Positions 6,069 to 19,004 of a DNA stretch of 20,324 nucleotides are shown here, piece after piece (position 1 is the first letter of the stretch; each line of letters begins with the position of its first letter). Position numbers and translations under genes: made by a program. The DNA lies in the IMG/VR virus record IMGVR_UViG_3300030328_001871, positions 1 through 20,324 of that record; one strand, written 5' to 3'. The DNA is from a virus. The notes under the pieces are model-generated. The model did not search any database. It worked only from the letters and a program-made list of their open reading frames with translations, and was not told the DNA's origin.

Positions 6069-6237
6069 AACTTATGAAGTAATAGTTGATGTGGTTGAGA
6101 GCCATAAATTAACTATAAAAGCCAAAACAAAAGATCAAGCTGAAGAATTAGCTGAAATTAATGAATGTGATGGAGAGCCACACTATACAGAAGTCAACAT
6201 AATATCAACAAAGGAGCTGAACAATGACACAGTATAA
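6061..6237 (+). CDS. Small beta-alpha protein, 58 aa
   Basis: ATG at 6061 overlaps the upstream gene and follows GAGGAGGA by about 7 nt. The sequence MSKTYEVIVDVVESHKLTIKAKTKDQAEELAEI has the pattern of a short strand pair followed by a helix that starts at KDQAEELAE. That pattern is common to small phage beta-beta-alpha proteins (for example sequences of the x-Y-x-V-x-V...I-x-A-x-T-x-x-x-A class). Its role is unknown. It overlaps the next gene by 14 nt. Confidence 0.65.
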   Translation: MSKTYEVIVDVVESHKLTIKAKTKDQAEELAEINECDGEPHYTEVNIISTKELNNDTV

Positions 6238-6523
6238 AGATAAAGTAGATCAACAACGCAAACTCATTCGCCTGGAGGAATGGAGAAAAGGTATCAAGAT
6301 GCTACTGCACGAACGCAAAAGCAAAGACAAGCCTTGGAAAACTCAAATCATATACAAAGATGATAGCGAACTTATCCAATGGTCTAATACTAACCATGAA
6401 CAAAAGATTCCAAGTCCTCACACGACAGAAGATCTAATAGACATGATGCAAGTTGAAGAACATGAACAACAAAGAAAACTATTTGATAAAAAAAGGAGAG
6501 AGAATGAACTACAAAATATCTAA
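6224..6523 (+). CDS. Charged helical protein of unknown function, 99 aa
   Basis: ATG at 6224 follows AAGGAGCTGA. The product is highly charged, with a basic amphipathic N-terminal third (DQQRKLIRLEEWRKGIKMLLHERKS) and a mixed C-terminal helix (EEHEQQRKLFDKKRREN). It is probably a helical nucleic acid or protein-binding factor, from composition only. It overlaps the next gene by 20 nt. Confidence 0.6.
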   Translation: MTQYKDKVDQQRKLIRLEEWRKGIKMLLHERKSKDKPWKTQIIYKDDSELIQWSNTNHEQKIPSPHTTEDLIDMMQVEEHEQQRKLFDKKRRENELQNI

Positions 6524-6737
6524 AGATGTTCCTATCGTAAGCGACAGGAAAAAATACAGGAACGCATTTACCCAAGCACTCAACAGCTTACAGGTCGGAG
6601 ACGCAATAACAGGTCTTACTAAAAAAGAGGCTTACAAATACCGAATGAATTTCTATACCAAGAACTTTAAAGAACGCAAGTTCTGTTTCTGGAGAGATCC
6701 TATCAGTAAAAAATACACAGTTCAGAGGACAGCATAA
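6504..6737 (+). CDS. Small basic phage protein, 77 aa
   Basis: I choose ATG 6504 because AAGGAGAGAG stands immediately upstream. An in-frame upstream ATG at 6453 lies inside the previous gene and has no ribosome site. The protein reads MNYKISKDVPIVSDRKKYRNAF, then LQVGDAIT and KEAYKYRMNFYTKNFKERKFCFWRD. The VGD turn followed by a helix and basic strands is a pattern I recall from small phage proteins of unknown role, possibly DNA or RNA binding. The next gene starts at its stop (TAATG). Confidence 0.65.
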   Translation: MNYKISKDVPIVSDRKKYRNAFTQALNSLQVGDAITGLTKKEAYKYRMNFYTKNFKERKFCFWRDPISKKYTVQRTA

Positions 6738-6862
6738 TGGATAGAGAAGAATTTTTTGAATGGTTAGATAAATGTAAGTGTGATTATGTTTATGAGAAAG
6801 ATGATTATGGAGAAATTAATATTACTTTTTATCCTAAAGAAGAAACTGAGGAGCAAGACTAA
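6737..6862 (+). CDS. Acidic small protein, 41 aa
   Basis: Starts at the TAATG junction. The product MDREEFFEWLDKCKCDYVYEKDDYGEINITFYPKEETEEQD is very acidic, with a helix followed by two strands and a Cys-Lys-Cys pair at 13-15. A helix-strand pattern with a DDYGEINITFY hairpin recurs in small phage proteins, though no name can be given. It ends at another TAATG, coupled to a 23-residue peptide. Confidence 0.55.
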   Translation: MDREEFFEWLDKCKCDYVYEKDDYGEINITFYPKEETEEQD

Positions 6863-6933
6863 TGGACATGAGTTTATTCGCAGTCGTAGGTATAGTGCTA
6901 CTCATGGTCTATGCCATGTTCCAGGAGATGTAA
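6862..6933 (+). CDS. Single-span membrane microprotein, 23 aa
   Basis: ATG at 6862 overlaps the upstream TAA, follows GAGGAG by about 9 nt, and its own TAA overlaps the ATG at 6933. The peptide is MDMSLFAVVGIVLLMVYAMF followed by QEM, with residues about 4-20 forming one hydrophobic membrane helix. Tight coupling on both sides and a proper ribosome site argue that it is translated. The length is below what most gene finders report. The role is unknown; small phage membrane peptides often modulate a host membrane protein. Confidence 0.5.
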   Translation: MDMSLFAVVGIVLLMVYAMFQEM

Positions 6934-7070
6934 TGGCTAATTATAAATATATTGTATGGGTGGGTGGTTGTGATGACTACTACACTTCATACAGAAAAGC
7001 TAAACAAGATTACGATAAATGGATTGAGCAAGGATATGATGATGTTCATTTAGAAAAGGTATCTGAATGA
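6933..7070 (+). CDS. Small conserved phage protein with VWVGGCDDYYT, 45 aa
   Basis: ATG 6933 follows AGGAG (6923-6927) by 5 nt. An in-frame ATG at 6780 would run through two real genes and is rejected. The product begins MANYKYIVWVGGCDDYYTSY and continues with AKQDYDKWIEQGYDDVHLE. This strand, DDYY turn, helix and YDDVxxE strand pattern is one I recall as common in small proteins of marine phages, with no assigned function. It overlaps the next gene by ATGA. Confidence 0.7.
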   Translation: MANYKYIVWVGGCDDYYTSYRKAKQDYDKWIEQGYDDVHLEKVSE

Positions 7071-7255
7071 CATTTGAAAAAGGTTTATCAGAATTGCAAA
7101 AGCTAGTGCAAGAATTAGAACGCAACGACATATCACTTGAACAATCAGTAGAAAACTTTGAGAAAGGTATCAAGGTCGCAAAATATTGTGAACGCAAGTT
7201 AAAGGACGCAGAAGATAAAGTTAAGGCTATTCTGGATCAGACTGATCCTCAATAG
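7067..7255 (+). CDS. xseB: Exodeoxyribonuclease VII small subunit-like protein
   Basis: The 62-residue product matches the XseB family: TFEKGLSELQKLVQELERNDISLEQSVENFEKGIKVAKYC and then a charged KLKDAEDKV helix. The usual family pattern is F-x-x-x-x-x-x-L-x-x-x-V-x-x-L-E followed by (L/I)SLE-x-S-(L/V)-x-x-F-E-x-G and a Y-C-x-x-x-L helix. XseB is the helical small subunit that binds several-to-one to XseA to form exonuclease VII, which degrades single-stranded DNA. No XseA is in this window, so the protein would have to act with a host XseA or alone. It is the last gene of the operon and its final 29 bp overlap the 3' end of terS on the other strand. Confidence 0.85.
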   Translation: MTFEKGLSELQKLVQELERNDISLEQSVENFEKGIKVAKYCERKLKDAEDKVKAILDQTDPQ

Positions 7256-7715
7256 TCTTATCATCTTTAACTTCCTCAGCCGTGCCAAGTATGATCTGAT
7301 TCTGCAAGACTAACTCTTGCAATCTATTTTCTAACTGCTCTCTGCTCATGTTATCTATCTTGTGTATCTTCAGCTCCTTTCTATCCACCATAAGCCCTGC
7401 AAGTTTAGCCCTCGCAATTTCTGCCGTGACCGCAGGCCCATAACTCCCATCTGCTAAAGACACATCTCTTATCTCTGCTAACTTATTCGCTATGCCCTCA
7501 AAAGTAATTTCATTCTTCTTCCTTTGAATAGCTTTCAAATCTCTGATCTTTTCTTGCACGTGTTCATAGCCTGGCTCACTCAATAACCTAGTCGCAGCAA
7601 CTCCAGGATTCTCATAGCCTGCAAGATGAGCACACTTCGTTTGGTTGTAATCCTGATACACCATGAGATCAATAAATTTCTCCTGTTTCTTTGTTATTTT
7701 TTTCTTTCCTGCCAT
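7227..7715 (-). CDS. terS: Terminase small subunit
   Basis: The 162-residue product starts MAGKKKITKKQEKFIDLMV, followed by an HTH-type segment (about residues 9-45, NQTKCAHLAGYENPGVAATRLL). The C-terminal DNMSREQLENRLQELV helix is also typical. This pattern of Lys-rich start, x-x-x-QE-x-F, A-x-x-AGY and a late M-S-x-E-x-L helix fits phage terminase small subunits, which recognise the packaging site and stimulate TerL. The ATG at 7715 is 2 nt after the upstream ORF's stop, so it is likely coupled, with only a weak ribosome site. Its 3' end overlaps xseB in a convergent arrangement without a visible terminator. TerL is not adjacent but about 7 kb further left. Confidence 0.75.
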   Translation of the reverse strand: MAGKKKITKKQEKFIDLMVYQDYNQTKCAHLAGYENPGVAATRLLSEPGYEHVQEKIRDLKAIQRKKNEITFEGIANKLAEIRDVSLADGSYGPAVTAEIARAKLAGLMVDRKELKIHKIDNMSREQLENRLQELVLQNQIILGTAEEVKDDKTIEDQSDPE

Positions 7716-8140: not shown

Positions 8141-8243
8141 TTTGCCATGCCTCTATTTGTTCTAGTAATGTTTCAGGATCTACAAGCTCGTTTCTGCTTT
8201 CGCATTCTTCTAAATAATCTTTGATCATTTGTAGTATGTTCAT
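8127..8243 (-). CDS. Very small acidic protein, 38 aa
   Basis: Short ORF whose ATG (8243-8241) overlaps the stop of the C5 methyltransferase by ATGA, with GGAGATAG just upstream. The product is acidic and helical, starting MNILQMIKDYLEECESRNEL and ending EQIEAWQNEND. The coupling to the methyltransferase and to the next ORF is typical of an operon member. No function can be assigned. Confidence 0.5.
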   Translation of the reverse strand: MNILQMIKDYLEECESRNELVDPETLLEQIEAWQNEND

Positions 8244-10189
8244 TCTATCTCCATGTTTTGCAAGATATGTTTAATCACTTCTATAGTCCAGCCGTTCCCG
8301 AGCATGGCATAGCGTCTTGTATTTGACACATGATTCGTGTAGTCGTCCGGGACTGTCTGCAAACGTTCGCATTCTAGGGGTGTCAGCTTACGCCAGGTAA
8401 GATCTTCTTGTTGCACCCCTGTTGCATGAAATGTGCCTTGCCTTTCAAAGTTTGCTCTTGATGATTTGTAATACTGCGACTTAATTGTTTGTGATTTATC
8501 AGGTAAGTTTTTAATACTTATCTCATGATCTTTATTAAGACTAGGTGTGACTGTTCCGACCTTGCCGTCTTTTCTTGGCTCTAATTTCTTTGCTCTGAAA
8601 GGTGTATGATCTTTACCTGTTTGTTGCCTTACCTTTTTACGCATTGCTTTAGCCTCATCTGTTCTTACTTCTCTGTAAGAGTTCACCACCAAGCTATCTT
8701 TACTTACTGTTGAAACAGCGTTTGACTTTTGATCTTTACGCAGTTCTAACATTTGTTCTGGCTTTGTTTGTTTCCAATCAACATGCTTGCCGTCTTTGTC
8801 TTTTGATCTAGCTCGTAAAGCACCACCAACAACTACCTTCGGCTCACGATTACCACCTTGACAAGTGTTTACTGTAGGCGACTTACCATCTGGACTATAG
8901 ACTCGTTTGAGTATGTCATGTCCGTTGATGTCCACTGCAACGCCTACTTGTTTGGGTTTAGTTTCTATCATTTGTTCTTTGTTTGATGCAGTAAGCGTAG
9001 GGGATTTACCTTGATCACTGTAAACTCTTTGTGTGCTTTCATACACACCATCTCTGTATTCAAACTCCATGATCTGTTTATCAAACTTATCTGTTGTGAT
9101 ACCAAGTATTTCTTTTAACTGAGGCCAATGCTCCTCTGAAGGTATAGAAAAGAAATCACTACCTAGCTTTCTAAAGTAATGCTCAACTGTAGAATACTTA
9201 TCGTTCAGCTCCTTTGCTATTTCTTTTTTGTTCTTACCACACTTAGCATAGTGATCTAAGATACATGTTTGTAGTCCAGGTATATCAACCTCATGCTTTC
9301 TAACCTTTACTTCTTCTACATTCATACCTACTTTAATAGGTTTGTTTGTAAGCACTTTAGGTATGTTATTTGTGCCACCACCACCATTTCCTATACCATT
9401 CAACGTAGGAGATTTACCTTTTGTATCATATAAACCACCACCATAATGATTACCTTTTTCATTAGCTAGTTTGATAGGTTTCTGTGGAACTAAGGTCATA
9501 CCATTATTGCCTGCACCTTTATACATAGTCGCTGTCATACACAAAGACTTTTCATCTTCATTTTTGTAGTGCCTTTGATTTCTTTCAGTATCTTTTACAG
9601 GGCGTTCATCTGTTTCAGTTTCCAATATATCTCTCAACACTATACCTCTATCTTCTGGCTGTTTGATTCCAGGTATGTTAGTCCAATAGTATCTTTGCCT
9701 TGACTGTGCACTTAGTAGCGAACTATTTATAAAATGAGGATTGATCGTGACATTACCAAGTATGTCTTTAAACTCAGGTGCAACATCATCTGCTTCATAA
9801 CACTCTGATACTTGTTGGGTTATGATCTCTAAAAACTCTTTCTTCATTCTGACATTCTCTAATAAGAAATACTTTGGCTTGATCGCTTTGAGTAAGCGTA
9901 TGAACTCAAAGAACAATGCTGACCTAGGATCGTCAAAAGCCAACTGCTTACCTGCAAAACTAAATCCTTGACATGGACTGCCTGCAAGCATGAGGTCTAC
10001 ATCTTTATAATCTTTCGGATCTAAATTACATATATCGCCCACTTGTTCTATGTCTGGGTAGTTTGCTGCACTAACTTGCATAGCATACTTATCTATCTCA
10101 CTTGCGTAATACTTCTCTACAGGTATACCAAGCTGATCGAGTGCGATACGCCCACAACTCATGCCGTCAAATAAACTTAATACTTTCAT
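8240..10189 (-). CDS. DNA (cytosine-5-) methyltransferase with repetitive target-recognition region
   Basis: Transfers a methyl group from SAM to C5 of cytosine in DNA. Motif I SLFDGMSCGRIAL (5-17), the catalytic loop GSPCQGFS (70-77, nucleophile C73), ENV (111-113), QSRQR (162-166) and the terminal RKLTPLECERLQTVPDDYT with MLGNGWTIEVI (about 600-639) are all present, so the enzyme looks intact. At 649 residues it is much longer than a typical 330-450. The extra residues (about 205-590) hold some seven copies of a degenerate x-D-x-K-S-x-T-(L/V) motif, including GKSPTLNG, GKSPTLTA and GKSPTVNT. Between copies two and three is an HTH-like segment (about 297-385, NKKEIAKELNDKYSTVEHYFR). ATGA overlap with the upstream methyltransferase and an AGGGAGAAAC ribosome site support the start. 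A multispecific or modular target domain is inferred. Confidence 0.93.
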   Translation of the reverse strand: MKVLSLFDGMSCGRIALDQLGIPVEKYYASEIDKYAMQVSAANYPDIEQVGDICNLDPKDYKDVDLMLAGSPCQGFSFAGKQLAFDDPRSALFFEFIRLLKAIKPKYFLLENVRMKKEFLEIITQQVSECYEADDVAPEFKDILGNVTINPHFINSSLLSAQSRQRYYWTNIPGIKQPEDRGIVLRDILETETDERPVKDTERNQRHYKNEDEKSLCMTATMYKGAGNNGMTLVPQKPIKLANEKGNHYGGGLYDTKGKSPTLNGIGNGGGGTNNIPKVLTNKPIKVGMNVEEVKVRKHEVDIPGLQTCILDHYAKCGKNKKEIAKELNDKYSTVEHYFRKLGSDFFSIPSEEHWPQLKEILGITTDKFDKQIMEFEYRDGVYESTQRVYSDQGKSPTLTASNKEQMIETKPKQVGVAVDINGHDILKRVYSPDGKSPTVNTCQGGNREPKVVVGGALRARSKDKDGKHVDWKQTKPEQMLELRKDQKSNAVSTVSKDSLVVNSYREVRTDEAKAMRKKVRQQTGKDHTPFRAKKLEPRKDGKVGTVTPSLNKDHEISIKNLPDKSQTIKSQYYKSSRANFERQGTFHATGVQQEDLTWRKLTPLECERLQTVPDDYTNHVSNTRRYAMLGNGWTIEVIKHILQNMEIE

Positions 10190-11049: not shown

Positions 11050-11258
11050 TCTCTCTCCTTGTAATAAACTCTTACCATATACTTTCTCACAACTGCTACC
11101 AAAGTAAACACTGATACTTGTATTACAGATGTAGCTACAAGACTAACATCAAGATAGCTACACAACCTAAGCAAACCATAGCTGATCGGAAACGACATAA
11201 GCAATCCAATACCAACATCATTGACTGCTTCTTCCATAGAGTCTTTGTCAATCTTCAT
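11046..11258 (-). CDS. Small two-helix membrane protein, 70 aa
   Basis: Acidic N-terminus (MKIDKDSMEEAVNDVG) followed by two hydrophobic spans, about residues 16-34 and 38-57, and a basic RKYMVRVYYKERE tail. The EA...N...G start and the FTLVAVVRKYMVR end recall a small phage membrane protein family of the DUF7220 type, whose function is unknown. The assignment is from memory of the pattern and moderate. It is embedded in the leftward operon: it overlaps the primase end by 11 nt and the methyltransferase start by ATGA. Confidence 0.65.
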   Translation of the reverse strand: MKIDKDSMEEAVNDVGIGLLMSFPISYGLLRLCSYLDVSLVATSVIQVSVFTLVAVVRKYMVRVYYKERE

Positions 11259-13254
11259 CCCACGGCCTTTTCATTTCATTGTCTGCTAAGTAATACCATG
11301 TGTTCTTGCCTGGAACATTGTGACTCTTGACTCTCTCGCCTAGATACTTTTGCACATAGCTAACTGCATAACGAGCAGCCCTTTCGCCTGATGCTAGTTC
11401 GTTTTCTTTGAGTGCTTGTCTTGCTAATAGTTCTAGTTCTTTTCTTGAGTAGAACTTTTGTTTGCTCATAGCTGATGCCACCACTCTTGCAATCTCTACT
11501 TCATCTGGACTGTCTTGTGCATCTACCACCTTAAAGTATCCTCTTTCAAAATCAAAGTATGCTAAGTGTTGTTCAGGCTCTCTTGCATTACGAGCTTCAT
11601 AGAATAAAGTTATGTTTGGTTTTTTACCTGACAGCTTGACACCTGAATCCATCCAACCTGCAAAGGCACTACCACCTCTAGCTGACATGAACGACAGGTC
11701 ATCTGCTCTTTCTTTTCCTGTGTGATGAGCAATGATGACTGCTACTTTATATAGTTCAATAAGTTTATCTATCCTTGACAGCATCTCATGTATCTCAGAG
11801 TTAGAGTTTTCTTCTCCACTAAAAAAGTTAATGATAGGATCAATCATAACCAAGTCAGGCTTATGATATTCAATACTCTCTGCGATAGCATCTATGTCGC
11901 TGTCCCTCATTAAGTTCTTTCTTAATCTGCCTGATGCTATGAGGTTTGACTTGCCTATGTTGTATAGCTCTGGATCATGATGAAAAGGTTGGTAATACAT
12001 TTCTATTCTTTTCTTTAAGAACTCATGAATGATCTCTGCTTGTAGCCACATAACCTTGAGTGGTCTTGAGAAAGACCTACCCATAAACTCTGTGCCTGTC
12101 GTAGCTGCTGCTGCGAAAGCACCTAACCAATGCGACTTACCTATCTTTGGTTTACCAAGCAATAATACTCTTGACTGTTCAAATACAAAAGCATCTCCCC
12201 AATACTGCTCAATCCTGTCTGAATCCATAGCATCCCAGAAAGGATCATTAAAAGGCCTAAGTCCTAGTGGATCACTGTCAACTGCGTTTTCTTTCTTTGC
12301 TTGCTCAATAGGATCTTCTTGATCCATGATTTCTTTTAAGTCATCTGTTAATTGTATCTGCCACTGACTTGTATTCCATTTTTGAATACCACTCTCATCA
12401 CTAGGATTTCTTTTTAGGTGTCCTGTGCATATACTTTGGGTTGTGTTTAAGACTTCTTGGACACTCATAGGTGGAGTATTAGTTTGATTCCAGTCCAATG
12501 CTTTGATAACAACTTCTCTCATACCCCAACCCTCTAGTATCCATTTGCCTACTAGCCTGGCGAGAGTATCATTACGCATTCCTGTTTGAACACCATCTGT
12601 TGTTAGTGGTGTCTTGCTGTCTGTGTTGATCTTACCTGTGTTGTTATAGTCATAGATAACATTCATGTCTTGACTTGTTAGTGTTGGTAAGTCATCAAGC
12701 GAATCTAATACAGCTCCATCAACTACTTCAAACTTATAATTGAAAGAAGGGCTGACCATAACATAACCACCCTCTCCTCTTATATCTAGTTTACCTGTAG
12801 TGTTTCTAATCTTTAGATCATCATTGATTGCATAGAAATAATGATAGCCACCTCTAGGTGTTTTTTGTTTTAGTATTGTTCTTGTTATTTCTCCTGACTC
12901 ACAAAACTCACAGGCTTCTTGTGTGTCAGCATCAAGCACCACAAATGTTATGCCTGTGATAGCGGCCCAATTACATTCCGGGTATTGTAGATACCATTGC
13001 TTTACTTCATTAAGTGTAGGTTGTTTCTTTGTGTAGTCAGCCCACTTAACTCTTGGTGTTTTTGACCAACGCTTTTGTAAAACAATATCATCTTCAAATG
13101 GATGTCTGCTTTTAAAGTATTCTGGAATAATGTCTGTGGTAGATCCACATGGTATTAAGTGAAAGAAGTTTTCATGATATGAGATGAGCATATCTTTTCG
13201 TTCATCATTTTGAATGTCTTGACCGACAAAATTTGGTTTTATTTCTATTGGCAT
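11248..13254 (-). CDS. Primase-polymerase fused to RecA-fold helicase
   Basis: Replication protein with two domains. The N-terminal prim-pol part carries LDAD (about 107-110, metal-binding), TPRGGYHYFY (132-141) and DIRGEGGYVMVSPS (157-170), the three conserved blocks of bifunctional DNA primase/polymerase domains. The C-terminal RecA-like ATPase has LLLGKPKIGKS (Walker A, about 365-374), DLVMIDP (Walker B, about 467-473) and IAHHTGK (508-514), as in RepA/DnaB-like hexameric helicases. It would prime and unwind DNA at the phage origin. I take the ATG at 13254, which overlaps the HTH gene's stop by 10 nt. A TTG at 13284 gives ten more residues but lacks a placed ribosome site. It is the largest gene and the second of the leftward operon. 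Confidence 0.88.
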   Translation of the reverse strand: MPIEIKPNFVGQDIQNDERKDMLISYHENFFHLIPCGSTTDIIPEYFKSRHPFEDDIVLQKRWSKTPRVKWADYTKKQPTLNEVKQWYLQYPECNWAAITGITFVVLDADTQEACEFCESGEITRTILKQKTPRGGYHYFYAINDDLKIRNTTGKLDIRGEGGYVMVSPSFNYKFEVVDGAVLDSLDDLPTLTSQDMNVIYDYNNTGKINTDSKTPLTTDGVQTGMRNDTLARLVGKWILEGWGMREVVIKALDWNQTNTPPMSVQEVLNTTQSICTGHLKRNPSDESGIQKWNTSQWQIQLTDDLKEIMDQEDPIEQAKKENAVDSDPLGLRPFNDPFWDAMDSDRIEQYWGDAFVFEQSRVLLLGKPKIGKSHWLGAFAAAATTGTEFMGRSFSRPLKVMWLQAEIIHEFLKKRIEMYYQPFHHDPELYNIGKSNLIASGRLRKNLMRDSDIDAIAESIEYHKPDLVMIDPIINFFSGEENSNSEIHEMLSRIDKLIELYKVAVIIAHHTGKERADDLSFMSARGGSAFAGWMDSGVKLSGKKPNITLFYEARNAREPEQHLAYFDFERGYFKVVDAQDSPDEVEIARVVASAMSKQKFYSRKELELLARQALKENELASGERAARYAVSYVQKYLGERVKSHNVPGKNTWYYLADNEMKRPWDED

Positions 13255-13442
13255 TCGTCTACTGATCCATAAATGTTTTCCCAACCTAAAGCATAGCCTG
13301 TCATCTTGATTAATTTTTTAGCTTGATTAACTGAGGGTTGTCTATTGCCATATCTCCAGGACTTAATAGTATCAACTGATACTCCCAAATCTTTTGCTAG
13401 GTTTTCTTCACCTCGTTTTTTTATATAGTCTTTAAGTTCCAT
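13245..13442 (-). CDS. HTH transcriptional regulator, XRE/Cro-like, 65 aa
   Basis: Residues about 12-37 read EENLAKDLGVSVDTIKSWRYGNRQPS, a helix-turn-helix of the Cro/XRE type (A-K-x-L-G-V-S-x-x-T-I-x-x-W...G-x-R-x-P). The protein is short, so it has the DNA-binding domain and little else. AGGAG is 5-6 nt upstream of the ATG. It opens the leftward replication/modification operon and faces the rightward recombination operon across 200 bp, so it probably represses one or both. The spaced inverted repeat at 13460-13532 is a plausible binding site. Confidence 0.8.
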   Translation of the reverse strand: MELKDYIKKRGEENLAKDLGVSVDTIKSWRYGNRQPSVNQAKKLIKMTGYALGWENIYGSVDECQ

Positions 13443-14087: not shown

Positions 14088-14287
14088 TGAACATACATTA
14101 CAGTGCAGTCATAATGCAAATTAAAGATACGATTAAAAGAGAAGTAGCACCTGGATTACATCCTAGTTGGGTTAATAAAATATTAACCATAATAGATGAT
14201 GTAGAAACAGTTGCAGATGAAATGACTTCTCAAGGTTTTGTATCCATGAATGATATGGAGGTAGACAACAATGAGTCTATTAAATGA
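14087..14287 (+). CDS. Small acidic protein of unknown function, 66 aa
   Basis: Coupled through TAATG to the gene before it and overlapping Sak4 by 17 nt. The product has an amphipathic N-terminal part (YSAVIMQIKDTIKREVAPGL), a PSWVNKILTIIDDVE helix and an acidic end. No motif is diagnostic. The last codons carry the GGAGG ribosome site used for Sak4. Confidence 0.6.
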   Translation: MNIHYSAVIMQIKDTIKREVAPGLHPSWVNKILTIIDDVETVADEMTSQGFVSMNDMEVDNNESIK

Positions 14288-15038
14288 AGTGACCACAGGA
14301 ATACAAATCCCTGCGATCAAGATAAACGTATCAGGAACTGACGGCATCGGTAAAACTACCTTTGCCAGTCAAGCACCCAAGCCTATCTTTATTAAGACAG
14401 AAGCTGGGACTAACTATGTAGACACATCATCTTTTCCATTATGTGAAAGCTACGATGACATAGTTAATCAGATCAGAACTTTGCATGATGAAAAGCATGA
14501 ATACAAAACCGTAGTCTTTGATACAACAGATTGGGCTGAGAAGTTAGTGCAACAAAAAGTTTGTATGAATCACTCAATTAAATCTATTGAATCACTTGGT
14601 TATGGTAAAGGTTTTACAGAGTCTGCTGAATTGTTTGGCAGATTACTACGCATGTTTGATGCTCTACAGAAAAAGAAAATGCACGTCATTTTACTTTCTC
14701 ATGTAGGCATTAGAACTTTCAATGATCCAGAGCGAGAGCCTTATGATCGTTGGGAAATGTCCACACATAAAAAAGTATCAGCAATGATTCGTGAATGGGT
14801 GGACTTTAACTTGTTTGCAAACTACGAGGTATCAACTCGTACAAGTGGACAGGGTTTCAAGGAAACAACCAGGGCAGTGTCTTATGGCAAGCGTAAGTTG
14901 TTTCATAAATATACCGCAGCATTTGATGCTAAGAGTCGAGTTGATCTTGGGGTAGCACCTTTGGATCTTGATTGGACAGCTTTCATGACTGCATTTAAAC
15001 AATCTTTAAAATCTAAACAAGGAGAAAAAAATGTCTGA
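14271..15038 (+). CDS. Sak4-like RecA-fold ATPase, single-strand annealing recombinase
   Basis: The 255-residue protein has the Walker A loop SGTDGIGKTT (21-30), Walker B KTVVFDT (79-85) and a sensor-like HVILLSH (138-144), the layout of phage Sak4/AAA_24 ATPases. These RecA-like single-domain proteins assist single-strand annealing and normally work with a phage SSB. Here the next gene is a DUF669-like putative SSB overlapping by 8 nt, which fits well. The ATG has GGAGG about 10 nt upstream. It probably acts with the helicase and nuclease downstream in recombination or repair of phage DNA. Confidence 0.82.
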   Translation: MSLLNEVTTGIQIPAIKINVSGTDGIGKTTFASQAPKPIFIKTEAGTNYVDTSSFPLCESYDDIVNQIRTLHDEKHEYKTVVFDTTDWAEKLVQQKVCMNHSIKSIESLGYGKGFTESAELFGRLLRMFDALQKKKMHVILLSHVGIRTFNDPEREPYDRWEMSTHKKVSAMIREWVDFNLFANYEVSTRTSGQGFKETTRAVSYGKRKLFHKYTAAFDAKSRVDLGVAPLDLDWTAFMTAFKQSLKSKQGEKNV

Positions 15039-15525
15039 TTTTGAAATTAACTTAACGGAAGTTGAGGAAAGCGGATCGTTTGATCTGTTGCCAGTCGGAG
15101 ACTATGAGTTTGTAGCATCAGGCTGGGAGAATAAAACCAGTGGTAAGGGAGATAAGTATTTATCTGTTACCTTTGATGTTACTGGGCCTACACATGCTGG
15201 TCGTAAGATATGGGAAACCTTTATGCTTGAAGGAGCAGGGTTGAATGTGTCTGTAGCCAGGTTGCGAGATTGGAGAAGATCTATGGGGATGGATCCTGAT
15301 GTCGAAGCTTTTGGTATAGAACAGCTTGAAGGTATGTTGAACGTACCCTTAACTGCCAAGGTCAATGTTGAAGTTGGTAAAGATAAAGGGGACGGAACGA
15401 AGTGGGATGACAAGAATAAAATTGCAAAATTTATTCCAAGCACTACTACTAGTGCGTCAGCTCCTTCGCCTAGTTCTAATACAGAATCTACATCTGATGA
15501 TGATGATTTTGATTGGGACAAATAA
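15031..15525 (+). CDS. DUF669-like putative ssDNA-binding protein, 164 aa
   Basis: The core (residues about 20-120) reads GDYEFVASGWENKTSGKGDKYL, then TFDVTGPTHAGRKIWETFML and GMLNVPLTAKVNV, matching the DUF669 pattern of G-x-Y-x-(F/V)...K-x-T-x-x-G-x-x-x-(Y/L)-L-x-(L/V)-x-(F/L)-x-(V/I)...G-R-K-(I/V)...L-x-x-x-(V/L). The C-terminus is a Ser/Thr-rich linker ending in acidic DDDDFDWDK, like the acidic tail SSBs use to recruit partners. It follows Sak4 with an 8-nt overlap and an AAGGAG ribosome site. It likely coats single-stranded DNA for recombination; that role is inference from family and context. Confidence 0.78.
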   Translation: MSDFEINLTEVEESGSFDLLPVGDYEFVASGWENKTSGKGDKYLSVTFDVTGPTHAGRKIWETFMLEGAGLNVSVARLRDWRRSMGMDPDVEAFGIEQLEGMLNVPLTAKVNVEVGKDKGDGTKWDDKNKIAKFIPSTTTSASAPSPSSNTESTSDDDDFDWDK

Positions 15526-15648: not shown

Positions 15649-15843
15649 ATGAATATAGATAAGAGAGAGGCTAGAGCCTTAATAAAATCAATGACATCTT
15701 TAATAAACTCTTTAGATCAAAACTTTGACAGTTTGCCTACTGATCTAAATGATAAAGTAAAAGAAGCTAAAATGTTATTGTTGAATGTAGATACGAGAGC
15801 GGATCGACATAGAAAAATTTATAGAATACTTGGATTAAATTGA
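15649..15843 (+). CDS. Small basic helical protein, 64 aa
   Basis: First gene after the structured gap, with TTGGAGAAAT ahead of its ATG. The product is helical and basic (KREARALIKSMTSLINSL, then DKVKEAKMLLLNV and RADRHRKIYRI). No motif identifies a function. Its TGA overlaps the TTG start of the helicase (TTGA, 15840-15843), which suggests coupling to it. Confidence 0.6.
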   Translation: MNIDKREARALIKSMTSLINSLDQNFDSLPTDLNDKVKEAKMLLLNVDTRADRHRKIYRILGLN

Positions 15844-17510
15844 AACTACGCTACTACCAAAGAGATGCAATAGATTCTCTGCACAAGTGGTTTAACACTA
15901 GACCAGCAGAGGATCATGCTTTAATTGCATTGCCTACAGCAGCAGGTAAAACTATTATCTTTTCACATTTTATTAAAGAGATATTTGCTAAAGATCCTAC
16001 TGCTAGGTTTCTTGTCCTGGCACACAGAAAAGAATTGGTAGAGCAAGCAGAAACAAAACTAAAAACAGTATGGCCTGAAGCACCTGTTGGCGTGTTAGCG
16101 GCAGGCATGAAACGCTTTGAGATAGATTCACAAATACTTATAGCCAGTCGTGATACTTTGGCATCGCCCAAAAGATTAGAGGCTGTAGGTAGTTTTGATT
16201 ACATGATTATAGATGAGGCACATAATGTGCCACCAAGTTCACACACTAGATACAAAAAAATTATAACTACTTTGTCTGATAGAAAGCCTATGCGTGTTAT
16301 GGGTTGTACTGCAACGCCATATCGTATGGGACAAGGTTATATTTATGGCAAGCGTAAAGATCATTTCTTCAAGGGCTTGGCTTATTCAGTATCAATACCT
16401 GAACTGATCCGTAATGGTTTCTTATCCAGGCTATCTGCTTATGCTGTAAATGATAACGCTGTCATTGATGCAGGAGCTGTAGCACTAAAGTTTAAGAACG
16501 GAGACTTCAAAGAGAGTGAGCTAGAAAAAATAGCTATGGTGGATGATACGATCTTACAAGTTATAAATGATTGGATTGACAACGCCTACACCAAAGGCAG
16601 AACAGCTACAGTATTTTTTTGTGTATCAGTGCTACACGCAGAGAAGATGACTCAGTGCCTAAAAAACTATGGGATTATGGCTGAGTGTGTGACAGGTGAA
16701 ACTCCAAAAGAAAAACGAGAAGACATACTAGAAAAATTTAATAACGGTTTGATCCATGCTATATGTAATGTAGGTGTATTGACTGAGGGTTGGGACGCTC
16801 CAAGAGCAGACTGCATAGCTTTACTCAGACCAACACAAAGCGTTGGCTTGTTTGTGCAAATGTGTGGTAGAGGTATGAGACTGCATGACGATAAAGAAAA
16901 CTGTTTGCTACTAGACTATGGAGAGAATGTAGCTAGGCATGGCTGTCTTGATGAGGTGCAACCAGATCGTACAGCACCGGGCAGATACCATCCTAAGATA
17001 TGTGCTAGTTGTAATGCGATCAACATACCGTCTGCTAGAAAATGTGTGGAGTGTGGACAAGAGTTTGAGGGATTTAAAAAGTTTCAAGAACTACAAACCA
17101 AAAAAGAAAAAAAGGTTGCTAGAAGAACTAAAGCAGAAAGGCAAGCTGTCTTATCTGATGAGAGAAAGAAAGCCAAACCAAGATACAAACCTGTCACTGA
17201 CATCTATGCAACCGTAACCAAATCCATGAACGGCAGTGAGTATTGTCAAGTGATCTTTACAGTTAAGGATGAGTTCTTTCCAAAGAAGATGCCCTTGATG
17301 TTCGGACATCCTAAGGCACACCACATGGCTGTTCGTAGATGGAAGAAGATAGCAGAGAAGTGGGGTGCTCCTGAGCAACCCTGGATGGCTGCTGAATTAA
17401 TTAATAGTGGTGCCTTTGAAAACATATCAGAGATTGTCTTACAAAAGCAGGGCAAGTATGAGAATGTCATAGGGATCAAAACAAAACAAAACAAGGAGAT
17501 AATGTTGTGA
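15840..17510 (+). CDS. Superfamily 2 DEAD/DEAH-box helicase with zinc finger, 556 aa
   Basis: An ATP-driven DNA helicase of the type II restriction helicase/RecG-like class. Motifs in order are LPTAAGKT (31-38), AHRKELVEQA (61-70), DEAH (125-128), CTATPYR (156-162), LTEGWDAP (314-321) and QMCGRGMR (340-347). A four-cysteine zinc site (C388, C391, C402, C405) comes next, followed by a basic C-terminal region. The start is TTG, overlapping the preceding stop by four bases, with no ATG further in that fits better. Such helicases recur in phage replication-recombination modules and would unwind intermediates made by Sak4, SSB and the nuclease. It ends in a GTGA overlap with the next gene. Confidence 0.92.
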   Translation: MKLRYYQRDAIDSLHKWFNTRPAEDHALIALPTAAGKTIIFSHFIKEIFAKDPTARFLVLAHRKELVEQAETKLKTVWPEAPVGVLAAGMKRFEIDSQILIASRDTLASPKRLEAVGSFDYMIIDEAHNVPPSSHTRYKKIITTLSDRKPMRVMGCTATPYRMGQGYIYGKRKDHFFKGLAYSVSIPELIRNGFLSRLSAYAVNDNAVIDAGAVALKFKNGDFKESELEKIAMVDDTILQVINDWIDNAYTKGRTATVFFCVSVLHAEKMTQCLKNYGIMAECVTGETPKEKREDILEKFNNGLIHAICNVGVLTEGWDAPRADCIALLRPTQSVGLFVQMCGRGMRLHDDKENCLLLDYGENVARHGCLDEVQPDRTAPGRYHPKICASCNAINIPSARKCVECGQEFEGFKKFQELQTKKEKKVARRTKAERQAVLSDERKKAKPRYKPVTDIYATVTKSMNGSEYCQVIFTVKDEFFPKKMPLMFGHPKAHHMAVRRWKKIAEKWGAPEQPWMAAELINSGAFENISEIVLQKQGKYENVIGIKTKQNKEIML

Positions 17511-17924: not shown

Positions 17925-19004
17925 ATGACAATCAATCATCTACTTGATGAAGTAGAAATAAAAAACAAACAACCACGAAGATTTTATTTGGGCATCAGTG
18001 GTATCGGTAATCCTAATCAAAGGCTCCTTTGGATGCGATACCGCTGGCTCATGCCTGATGAATGGGAGCCAAGAGTTCTTAGGTTGCTAGACTTAGGTAA
18101 TGTAGTAGAAGATCACTTGATCGAAAAGCTACGCAAGATACCAGGTGCAACTATCTACGATGTGCAAAAGGACGGCAGACAGTTTGAAACCAAAGCATTC
18201 GGTGGCCATTTGAAAGGACACATAGACGGTGTGGCTAAGAACTTACCTGGACTCAAACCAAACAAGCCATACTTACTAGAGTTCAAGACAGCTAACGACA
18301 ATCGTTTTAACAAGCTAGAAAAACTAGGTAGCTATTGTAATTGGTCAGAAGAGTATGACGCACAGATTCATTTGTATATGGGCTTGTTTAAATTAGATCA
18401 CTGCATAGCTATTGTTTATAACAAGAACAACTCTGCTCTATACACAGAGATCATAGACTTTGATTACTTAAAGTTTGAAATGTTTATGGACAAAGCTGAG
18501 AACATATTGAAGACCAAGACACCACCAGAGAATAACATACCACTGACTGACTATAGAATACGTAGCTATATGTCAAAGAAACAACAGGCCGCATATCTTG
18601 GTAGATCTTTGCCTGAAAAACTACACTGTAGGTCTTGTCGTTTTTCTAATCCAGATATTGAAACAGGCGAGTGGATTTGTTCCACGCAGAACAAAGTGAT
18701 AAGCAAGGAAAAACAAATCACAGGTTGTGCAAACCACAACTACATACCTGAACTAATACCAGCTAAAGTATTACAAGTTGATGATACCTTTGTAGTCTAT
18801 GAGAAAGATGATTTTAGGTTTGTTAATGTAGCCAAAGACAAACAATCTACAGGAGATAATTTTTATTCTAGCAAGGAGCTGATAGAGATTGTCAACAGCA
18901 ACTTTCCAAAAGAACTGATCGTTCAGTGTGAGAATGTTAAAAAACTTTTGAACGGAACAATATCTAGTATAAGACCTTGGGTTGAAACAGGCGTGCCTTT
19001 CTAA
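17925..19004 (+). CDS. PD-(D/E)XK nuclease with four-cysteine cluster, 359 aa
   Basis: A RecB/Cas4-type nuclease. E62 lies in LGNVVEDHLIE (57-67), D101 in GHIDG (98-102), E119 and K121 in LLEFKTA (117-123), and Q147 in QIHLYMG (147-153): the full PD-(D/E)XK set. C235, C238, C252 and C268 follow the core and could hold a zinc or iron-sulfur cluster. In Cas4/AddB the cluster is split between both ends, so this version differs. The residues after about 275 form an extra unassigned domain. It is the last gene of the recombination operon and its TAA overlaps the neighbouring convergent stop. It would resect or trim DNA ends for annealing. Confidence 0.85.
   Translation: MTINHLLDEVEIKNKQPRRFYLGISGIGNPNQRLLWMRYRWLMPDEWEPRVLRLLDLGNVVEDHLIEKLRKIPGATIYDVQKDGRQFETKAFGGHLKGHIDGVAKNLPGLKPNKPYLLEFKTANDNRFNKLEKLGSYCNWSEEYDAQIHLYMGLFKLDHCIAIVYNKNNSALYTEIIDFDYLKFEMFMDKAENILKTKTPPENNIPLTDYRIRSYMSKKQQAAYLGRSLPEKLHCRSCRFSNPDIETGEWICSTQNKVISKEKQITGCANHNYIPELIPAKVLQVDDTFVVYEKDDFRFVNVAKDKQSTGDNFYSSKELIEIVNSNFPKELIVQCENVKKLLNGTISSIRPWVETGVPF

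What the first reader, a model, noticed from the sequence alone, without database searches (positions are those of the whole stretch)
7067..7255. Orphan exonuclease VII small subunit in a phage operon
Seen: a 62-residue protein with the full XseB pattern at the end of the small-gene operon and no XseA-like gene in the window. Established: XseB has no known activity alone and works bound to XseA. Inference: it may bind the host XseA to boost, redirect or block exonuclease VII during infection, or serve a new partner.
Basis: partly seen in the sequence, partly recalled or inferred. Interest (0 to 1): 0.6.

Follow-up and report, generated by a model that had tools for sequence, protein, structure and literature searches.

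The report
Lone exonuclease VII subunit in phages
A group of uncultured phages all carry the helper part of a bacterial DNA-cutting enzyme but not the cutting part, so they probably plug their own helper into the enzyme of the cell they infect.

Summary
Window 7067-7255 (+) encodes a genuine 62-residue XseB: Pfam PF02609 E 5.5e-17, NCBIfam xseB equivalog over its cut-off, and a confident model (pLDDT 94) whose 13 best solved-structure matches are all XseB chains. It is not a chance feature of one contig. It lies tail to tail with the terminase small subunit gene in 77 of 80 terS loci fetched without reference to xseB. The 3 misses are contigs that end within 97 bases. It is under purifying selection (dN/dS 0.03-0.36). 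No XseA was found in 60 records of this clade. Two of these, about 57 and 74 kb, have differently placed ends and together close the gene map. The one annotated phage XseB that I read, in a Gordonia phage, follows its own XseA. So this is a true orphan subunit and a core gene of an uncultured phage clade, with no paper found. Most likely it loads onto host XseA and forms hybrid exonuclease VII, keeping XseA fully 'dressed' (XseA without XseB is reported to be toxic). Whether that preserves, restrains or poisons the enzyme cannot be told from sequence. The host is unknown. New variant of a known kind.

The parts
7067..7255 (+). xseB, exonuclease VII small subunit homologue, 62 aa, last gene of the rightward small-gene cluster
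7227..7715 (-). terS, terminase small subunit, convergent with xseB; the fixed neighbour across the clade
   Evidence: phrog_51 E 2e-8; beside xseB in 84 of 84 loci
7227..7255 (.). 29-base overlap of the 3' ends of xseB and terS, holding a near-palindrome GATCAG(A/T)CTGATC
6504..6737 (+). conserved small gene upstream of xseB, 77 aa, unknown family
   Evidence: found in 77 of 84 xseB loci (query 6519-6737, 5 residues short of the ATG); no Pfam match
6224..6523 (+). conserved small gene upstream of xseB, 99 aa, unknown family
   Evidence: found in 65 of 84 xseB loci; no Pfam match
11248..13284 (-). primase-polymerase/AAA helicase (context: phage replication)
   Evidence: Prim-Pol, PriCT_1, AAA_25
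14271..15038 (+). Sak4-like ssDNA annealing protein (context: phage recombination)
   Evidence: phrog_124 E 8.8e-40
15031..15525 (+). DUF669 / SSB-like protein (context)
15840..17510 (+). DNA helicase (context)
   Evidence: phrog_16 E 2.8e-91
17925..19004 (+). Cas4-domain exonuclease (context)
   Evidence: phrog_1990 E 7.6e-57

Best explanation
The gene makes a real exonuclease VII small subunit that acts in trans on the host's large subunit. SHOWN: it has the XseB family sequence and predicted fold, is conserved under purifying selection in a fixed place, and no XseA was found in its phages. INFERRED: made with the other small genes of the cluster, it coats the long helical arm of host XseA (about six XseB per XseA in E. 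coli, recalled), replacing or topping up host XseB and giving hybrid exonuclease VII. Preferred direction of effect: it keeps host XseA fully dressed, so the enzyme stays in its gated, non-toxic state and single-stranded DNA of the phage recombination module (Sak4, SSB-like, Cas4-like exonuclease) is not wasted. Confidence is about 0.65 that it binds host XseA, and about 0.55, given binding, that the hybrid is functional or restrained rather than poisoned. The score below is for the first two claims together with no commitment beyond that preference.
For: Family membership. Model pLDDT 94.2; the 13 best Foldseek hits are XseB chains of 8txr and 1vp7, E 0.002-0.043, then E 1.4. The core held constant in cellular XseB is kept: of 24 positions where at least 85% of 61 cellular sequences share a residue class, the phage majority agrees at 20; of 22 positions with one residue in at least 70%, at 15. 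Core gene: 77 of 80 terS loci. dN/dS 0.03-0.36 in the 68 of 105 pairs that passed the filter. No XseA: 0 of 23, 0 of 31 virus records, 0 of 6 further clade records, best E 0.87 with own profiles on four contigs. Literature passages: XseA without XseB is toxic and an excess of XseA lowers activity (PMC11077951; PMC9765227); removing ExoVII improves recombination by phage Red proteins (PMC3434165).
Against: No binding was shown. Several near-invariant cellular positions are changed in the phage clade: E11 (60 of 61 cells; 17 of 43 phages), G20 (53 of 61; at most 1 of 43), E33 and E49. XseA contacts could therefore be altered; I had no coordinates to map them. The stem of the phage branch is long, 0.84 changes per column. 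The host is unknown, so it is unknown whether it has XseA at all. Expression time and level are unknown.
Confidence: 0.5

Rival explanations
1. Dominant-negative inhibitor: phage XseB binds host XseA in place of host XseB but gives an inactive or blocked complex, shielding phage single-stranded DNA ends, in the role that Gam plays against RecBCD (Gam recalled).
For: Binding core kept while near-invariant positions E11, G20, E33, E49 are changed across the clade. The phage has a recombination module that should make ssDNA, and ExoVII lowers recombination efficiency in E. coli (PMC3434165).
Against: An inhibitor need not keep most of the consensus. Reported biochemistry has activity falling when XseA is in excess over XseB (PMC11077951 passages), so XseB promotes activity.
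Confidence: 0.27
2. It has a different partner, a phage protein without XseA similarity or another host protein, and uses the XseB hairpin as a coiled-coil adaptor.
For: Two neighbouring small genes of unknown family travel with it (77 of 84 and 65 of 84 loci). In E. coli the xseA deletion is worse for persisters than the double deletion, which the authors take to suggest an effect of XseB without XseA (PMC11077951).
Against: The only protein fixed immediately beside it is TerS, on the other strand, and in distant loci about 1 kb separates the small genes from xseB. XseB-specific residues would not need to persist with a new partner.
Confidence: 0.15
3. The phage does carry a very diverged or split XseA that profile searches miss.
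For: Most clade contigs are fragments.
Against: Contigs of 73.9 and 56.6 kb with differently placed ends close the gene map; the second holds TerL, portal and major head protein. Neither has a PF02601 match at E up to 1, nor one better than E 0.87 with own XseA profiles without filters. The same PF02601 search found the XseA of Gordonia phage Bantam at 4.5e-69.
Confidence: 0.05
4. Passenger gene or host contamination without function in the phage.
For: Two GenBank 'phage' records with XseB look like bacterial DNA, with xseA beside xseB.
Against: Fixed place beside terS in 84 of 84 loci, one branch in the tree, dN/dS well below 1.
Confidence: 0.03

Closest known systems
Bacterial exonuclease VII small subunit XseB (E. 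coli 8txr; Bordetella pertussis 1vp7)
   Same: Sequence family, length of the helical hairpin, predicted fold
   Different: Phage gene, no xseA partner found in the genome, short tails, clade-specific K5, G6, K36, Y40, K44 and loss of G20
Gordonia phage Bantam genes 47/48 (exonuclease VII large and small subunit)
   Same: Phage-encoded XseB
   Different: There XseB is encoded directly behind its own XseA; about 32% identity to the window protein
Phage-encoded ribosomal protein bS21 (PMC9723584, start of abstract seen) and T4 gp31 co-chaperonin (recalled)
   Same: A lone small subunit of a host machine carried by a phage without the rest of the machine
   Different: Different machine; function of XseB here not tested
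Lambda Gam and other phage inhibitors of host nucleases (recalled)
   Same: Possible purpose: control of a host DNA-degrading enzyme
   Different: Gam is not a homologue of a subunit of its target

Membership tests
XseB (exonuclease VII small subunit) | Sequence profile over the curated cut-off | tested here: met
   PF02609 62 vs 24 bits; TIGR01280 71.1 vs 35, NF002140 73.9 vs 71
XseB (exonuclease VII small subunit) | Two-helix hairpin fold of solved XseB | tested here: met
   pLDDT 94.2, helices 3-18 and 24-59; TMq 0.84-0.89 for nine of the 13 XseB chains and 0.68-0.80 for four; no Foldseek hit at E <= 0.001, which a chain of 62 residues hardly reaches
XseB (exonuclease VII small subunit) | Most conserved residues of cellular XseB kept | tested here: inconclusive
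   15 of 22 and 20 of 24 positions agree; cellular set from Desulfobacterota and Bacillota only, best-scoring loci
XseB (exonuclease VII small subunit) | Binds XseA and is needed for exonuclease VII activity | not testable with these tools
   No complex prediction with a host XseA, and no host known
Exonuclease VII of phages (Gordonia type) | xseA and xseB together in the genome | tested here: not met
   XseA in 0 of 60 clade records; Bantam positive

The most novel reading that the evidence does not exclude
XseA and XseB behave as a toxin and its antidote, and the phage carries the antidote alone. When infection upsets the balance (many XseB are needed per XseA), undressed XseA would damage DNA and kill the cell or the phage; the phage supplies XseB to stop this. 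That would make orphan XseB a counter-defence gene and exonuclease VII a hidden abortive-infection device.
Probability: 0.17. Interest if true: 0.75.

Novelty: new variant of a known kind. Interest (0 to 1): 0.52.

Why it matters
What XseB does for XseA in the cell is poorly understood. A phage clade that kept XseB alone, in one place, shows that supplying this subunit by itself is worth a gene to a virus, and gives a natural tool to separate XseB function from XseA. It also marks exonuclease VII as a likely point of conflict between phages and bacteria.

Tried and rejected
Host from the nearest bacterial XseB: the one genome-contig scan returned only 3 loci at 40-43% identity, two Desulfobacterales MAGs and one Bacillota MAG, so no host claim. 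The TerS relatives in cultured phages are distant: Pelagibacter phages HTVC027P and HTVC023P, and phage DSL-LC04 listed with a gammaproteobacterial host. HTVC027P and DSL-LC04 have no XseB match, and HTVC023P only one below the cut-off (E 0.002), so on this evidence they are not xseB-bearing members of the clade. HTVC027P gp28, which sits where xseB would be, is unrelated.

Direct circularity: neither the 73.9 nor the 56.6 kb contig has exact end repeats. A first impression that G001 simply wraps round was wrong: the repeat is 2.4 kb at 87% identity. Comparing the two contigs settled the map. G001 may be a join of two related strains.

Second orphan lineage: a scan with 10 cellular XseB gave 10 loci, 9 of this clade (terS beside). 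The tenth, L277, has a bacterial-type Sua5 neighbour and is probably host DNA or a boundary. The scan patterns are strict, so other orphan lineages are not excluded.

Retron link: no held paper has ExoVII, retron and msDNA together; PMC8989520 only cites the XseA toxicity paper in its references. Papers flagged for 'exonuclease VII' in phages (PMC5478533, PMC4205034) concern exonuclease VIII. The tRNA and Rfam searches of the window were empty.

Full report
OBSERVATION. The 62-codon ORF at 7067-7255 (+) is as described. It is a true member of the XseB family by two curated libraries (PF02609, 62 bits against a cut-off of 24; TIGR01280, 71.1 against 35, and NF002140, 73.9 against 71) and by sequence against solved structures (E. 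coli XseB in 8txr, E 1.4e-10; 1vp7, E 6.5e-8; next chain E 0.2). PHROGs, a library of phage families, has no match. A model from 20 phage sequences has mean pLDDT 94.2, with helices 3-18 and 24-59. Its 13 best Foldseek matches are all XseB chains of 8txr and 1vp7 (E 0.002 to 0.043), then E jumps to 1.4. No match passes E 0.001, which a chain this short hardly reaches. So the resemblance is not that of a generic helical hairpin.

PLACE. xseB is the last gene of a rightward run of small genes. Its 3' end overlaps by 29 bases the leftward gene 7227-7715, a terminase small subunit (phrog_51, E 2e-8). Beyond lie two DNA methyltransferases, a primase-polymerase/helicase and, divergently, a recombination module: Sak4-like protein, SSB-like DUF669 protein, helicase, Cas4-like exonuclease.

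IS IT A CORE GENE? I fetched loci by terS, without reference to xseB: 126 relatives were found and the best 80 kept. An XseB profile found xseB at the 3' end of terS in 77 of 80. The three misses (L053, L087, L090) have 2, 97 and 5 bases of contig left. Searches by XseB gave 22 loci, then 75 loci down to 45% identity, then 10 with a cellular alignment, 9 of them in this clade. All 84 clade loci examined together had terS beside xseB (L277, the tenth, was left out). Among 15 different sequences, codons 1-52 (outside the terS overlap), dN/dS was 0.03-0.36 in the 68 of 105 pairs that passed the filter (synonymous difference under 0.6 per site and at least 6 differences). The gene is maintained by selection.

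IS IT AN ORPHAN? PF02601 (XseA) at E up to 1 matched 0 of 23 records, 0 of 31 further virus records and 0 of 7 more, of which 6 belong to the clade: 0 of 60 clade records in all. Clade contigs listed but not given to these searches are under about 7 kb. Positive controls: Gordonia phage Bantam (4.5e-69) and three bacterial MAGs. Most records are fragments, so the long ones matter: 73.9 kb (G001, about 95% identical to the window over long stretches), 56.6 kb (G004, about 92%), 48.0, 31.8, 29.0, 26.5, 26.4 kb. G004 bases 602-31,200 align to G001 24.7-61.2 kb, and G004 31,200-56,500 to G001 0-25.4 kb. Each contig therefore spans the place where the other one ends, and the gene map closes. G004 has terminase large subunit, portal and major head protein. 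Profiles built from four XseA sequences, run without filters on the six frames of four contigs, gave nothing better than E 0.87, while the profile of the three bacterial ones found the Gordonia phage XseA at 3e-58. Caveats: neither contig has exact end repeats, and G001 holds a 2.4 kb repeat at 87% identity and may join two strains.

OTHER PHAGES. Among 50,697 phage records the window XseB matched 14 and a distant clade member 23. The annotated ones are Gordonia phages; in Bantam, which I read, xseB directly follows its own xseA. Two of the unannotated records hold xseA beside xseB, and in one the next ORF looks like a polyprenyl synthase (motif recalled). These look like bacterial DNA. The other unannotated records were not examined.

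RELATION TO CELLULAR XseB. In a tree of 43 phage and 61 cellular sequences, the phage sequences are one side of a branch (support 100/99, stem 0.84 changes per column). This rests on 60 columns and on cellular sequences from two phyla only, so the source lineage is open. Of 24 positions where at least 85% of cellular sequences share a residue class, the phage majority agrees at 20. Of 22 positions with one residue in at least 70%, it agrees at 15. Agreeing positions include F3-E4, F31-E32-G34, the hydrophobic heptads and C41. Disagreeing ones are A6G, E11Q, G20 lost, L28V, E33Q, L37I, E49T. K5, G6, K36, Y40 and K44 are invariant in 43 of 43 phage sequences. The protein thus looks like a working XseB with a clade-specific surface.

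MECHANISM. Shown: family, predicted fold, fixed place, selection, no XseA found. Inferred: binding to host XseA. From recall, E. coli exonuclease VII is XseA4 XseB24, with XseB coating long helical arms. From passages read: XseA without XseB is toxic and an excess of XseA reduces activity (PMC11077951; PMC9765227, both citing earlier work), and removing ExoVII helps recombination with phage Red proteins (PMC3434165). A phage that makes ssDNA by its own recombination module could gain by keeping host XseA dressed and gated (preferred), by poisoning it (rival), or by another use of the hairpin (rival). Sequence alone does not choose between the first two. The changed near-invariant residues favour poisoning somewhat; the kept consensus and the precedent of other lone host subunits in phages (bS21, PMC9723584, start of abstract seen) favour a functional hybrid.

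NOVELTY. Searches for phage-encoded orphan XseB in the held papers found none (the library lacks most subscription journals). Phage XseB with XseA is annotated in a Gordonia phage record. Hence a new variant of a known kind.

Noticed in passing
window 7227-7255: The overlapping 3' ends of xseB and terS share a near-palindrome, GATCAG(A/T)CTGATC, in 9 of 10 loci compared, so both proteins end in similar peptides (DQTDPQ and DQSDPE). It may be a structural or regulatory element between converging transcripts.
   Followed up: partly
window 8240-10189: Large C5 DNA methyltransferase (649 aa) with a long repetitive insert between its catalytic parts; among near relatives its best match varies from 50 to 99% identity while neighbours are more even, as if exchanged often.
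   Followed up: no
window 6862-6935: A 23-residue hydrophobic peptide gene just upstream of xseB is 91-100% identical in 8 of 22 related loci; possible small membrane protein.
   Followed up: no
L188 (OR846610.1), L201 (MT835471.1): Two GenBank records filed as phage hold xseA beside xseB, in one with a following polyprenyl synthase-like ORF: apparently bacterial contamination of phage collections.
   Followed up: partly
L277 2962-3216: A virus-labelled 8.4 kb contig has a bacterial-type xseB beside a split Sua5 gene and a Cpn10-like gene, with no XseA; host boundary or a second orphan case.
   Followed up: partly
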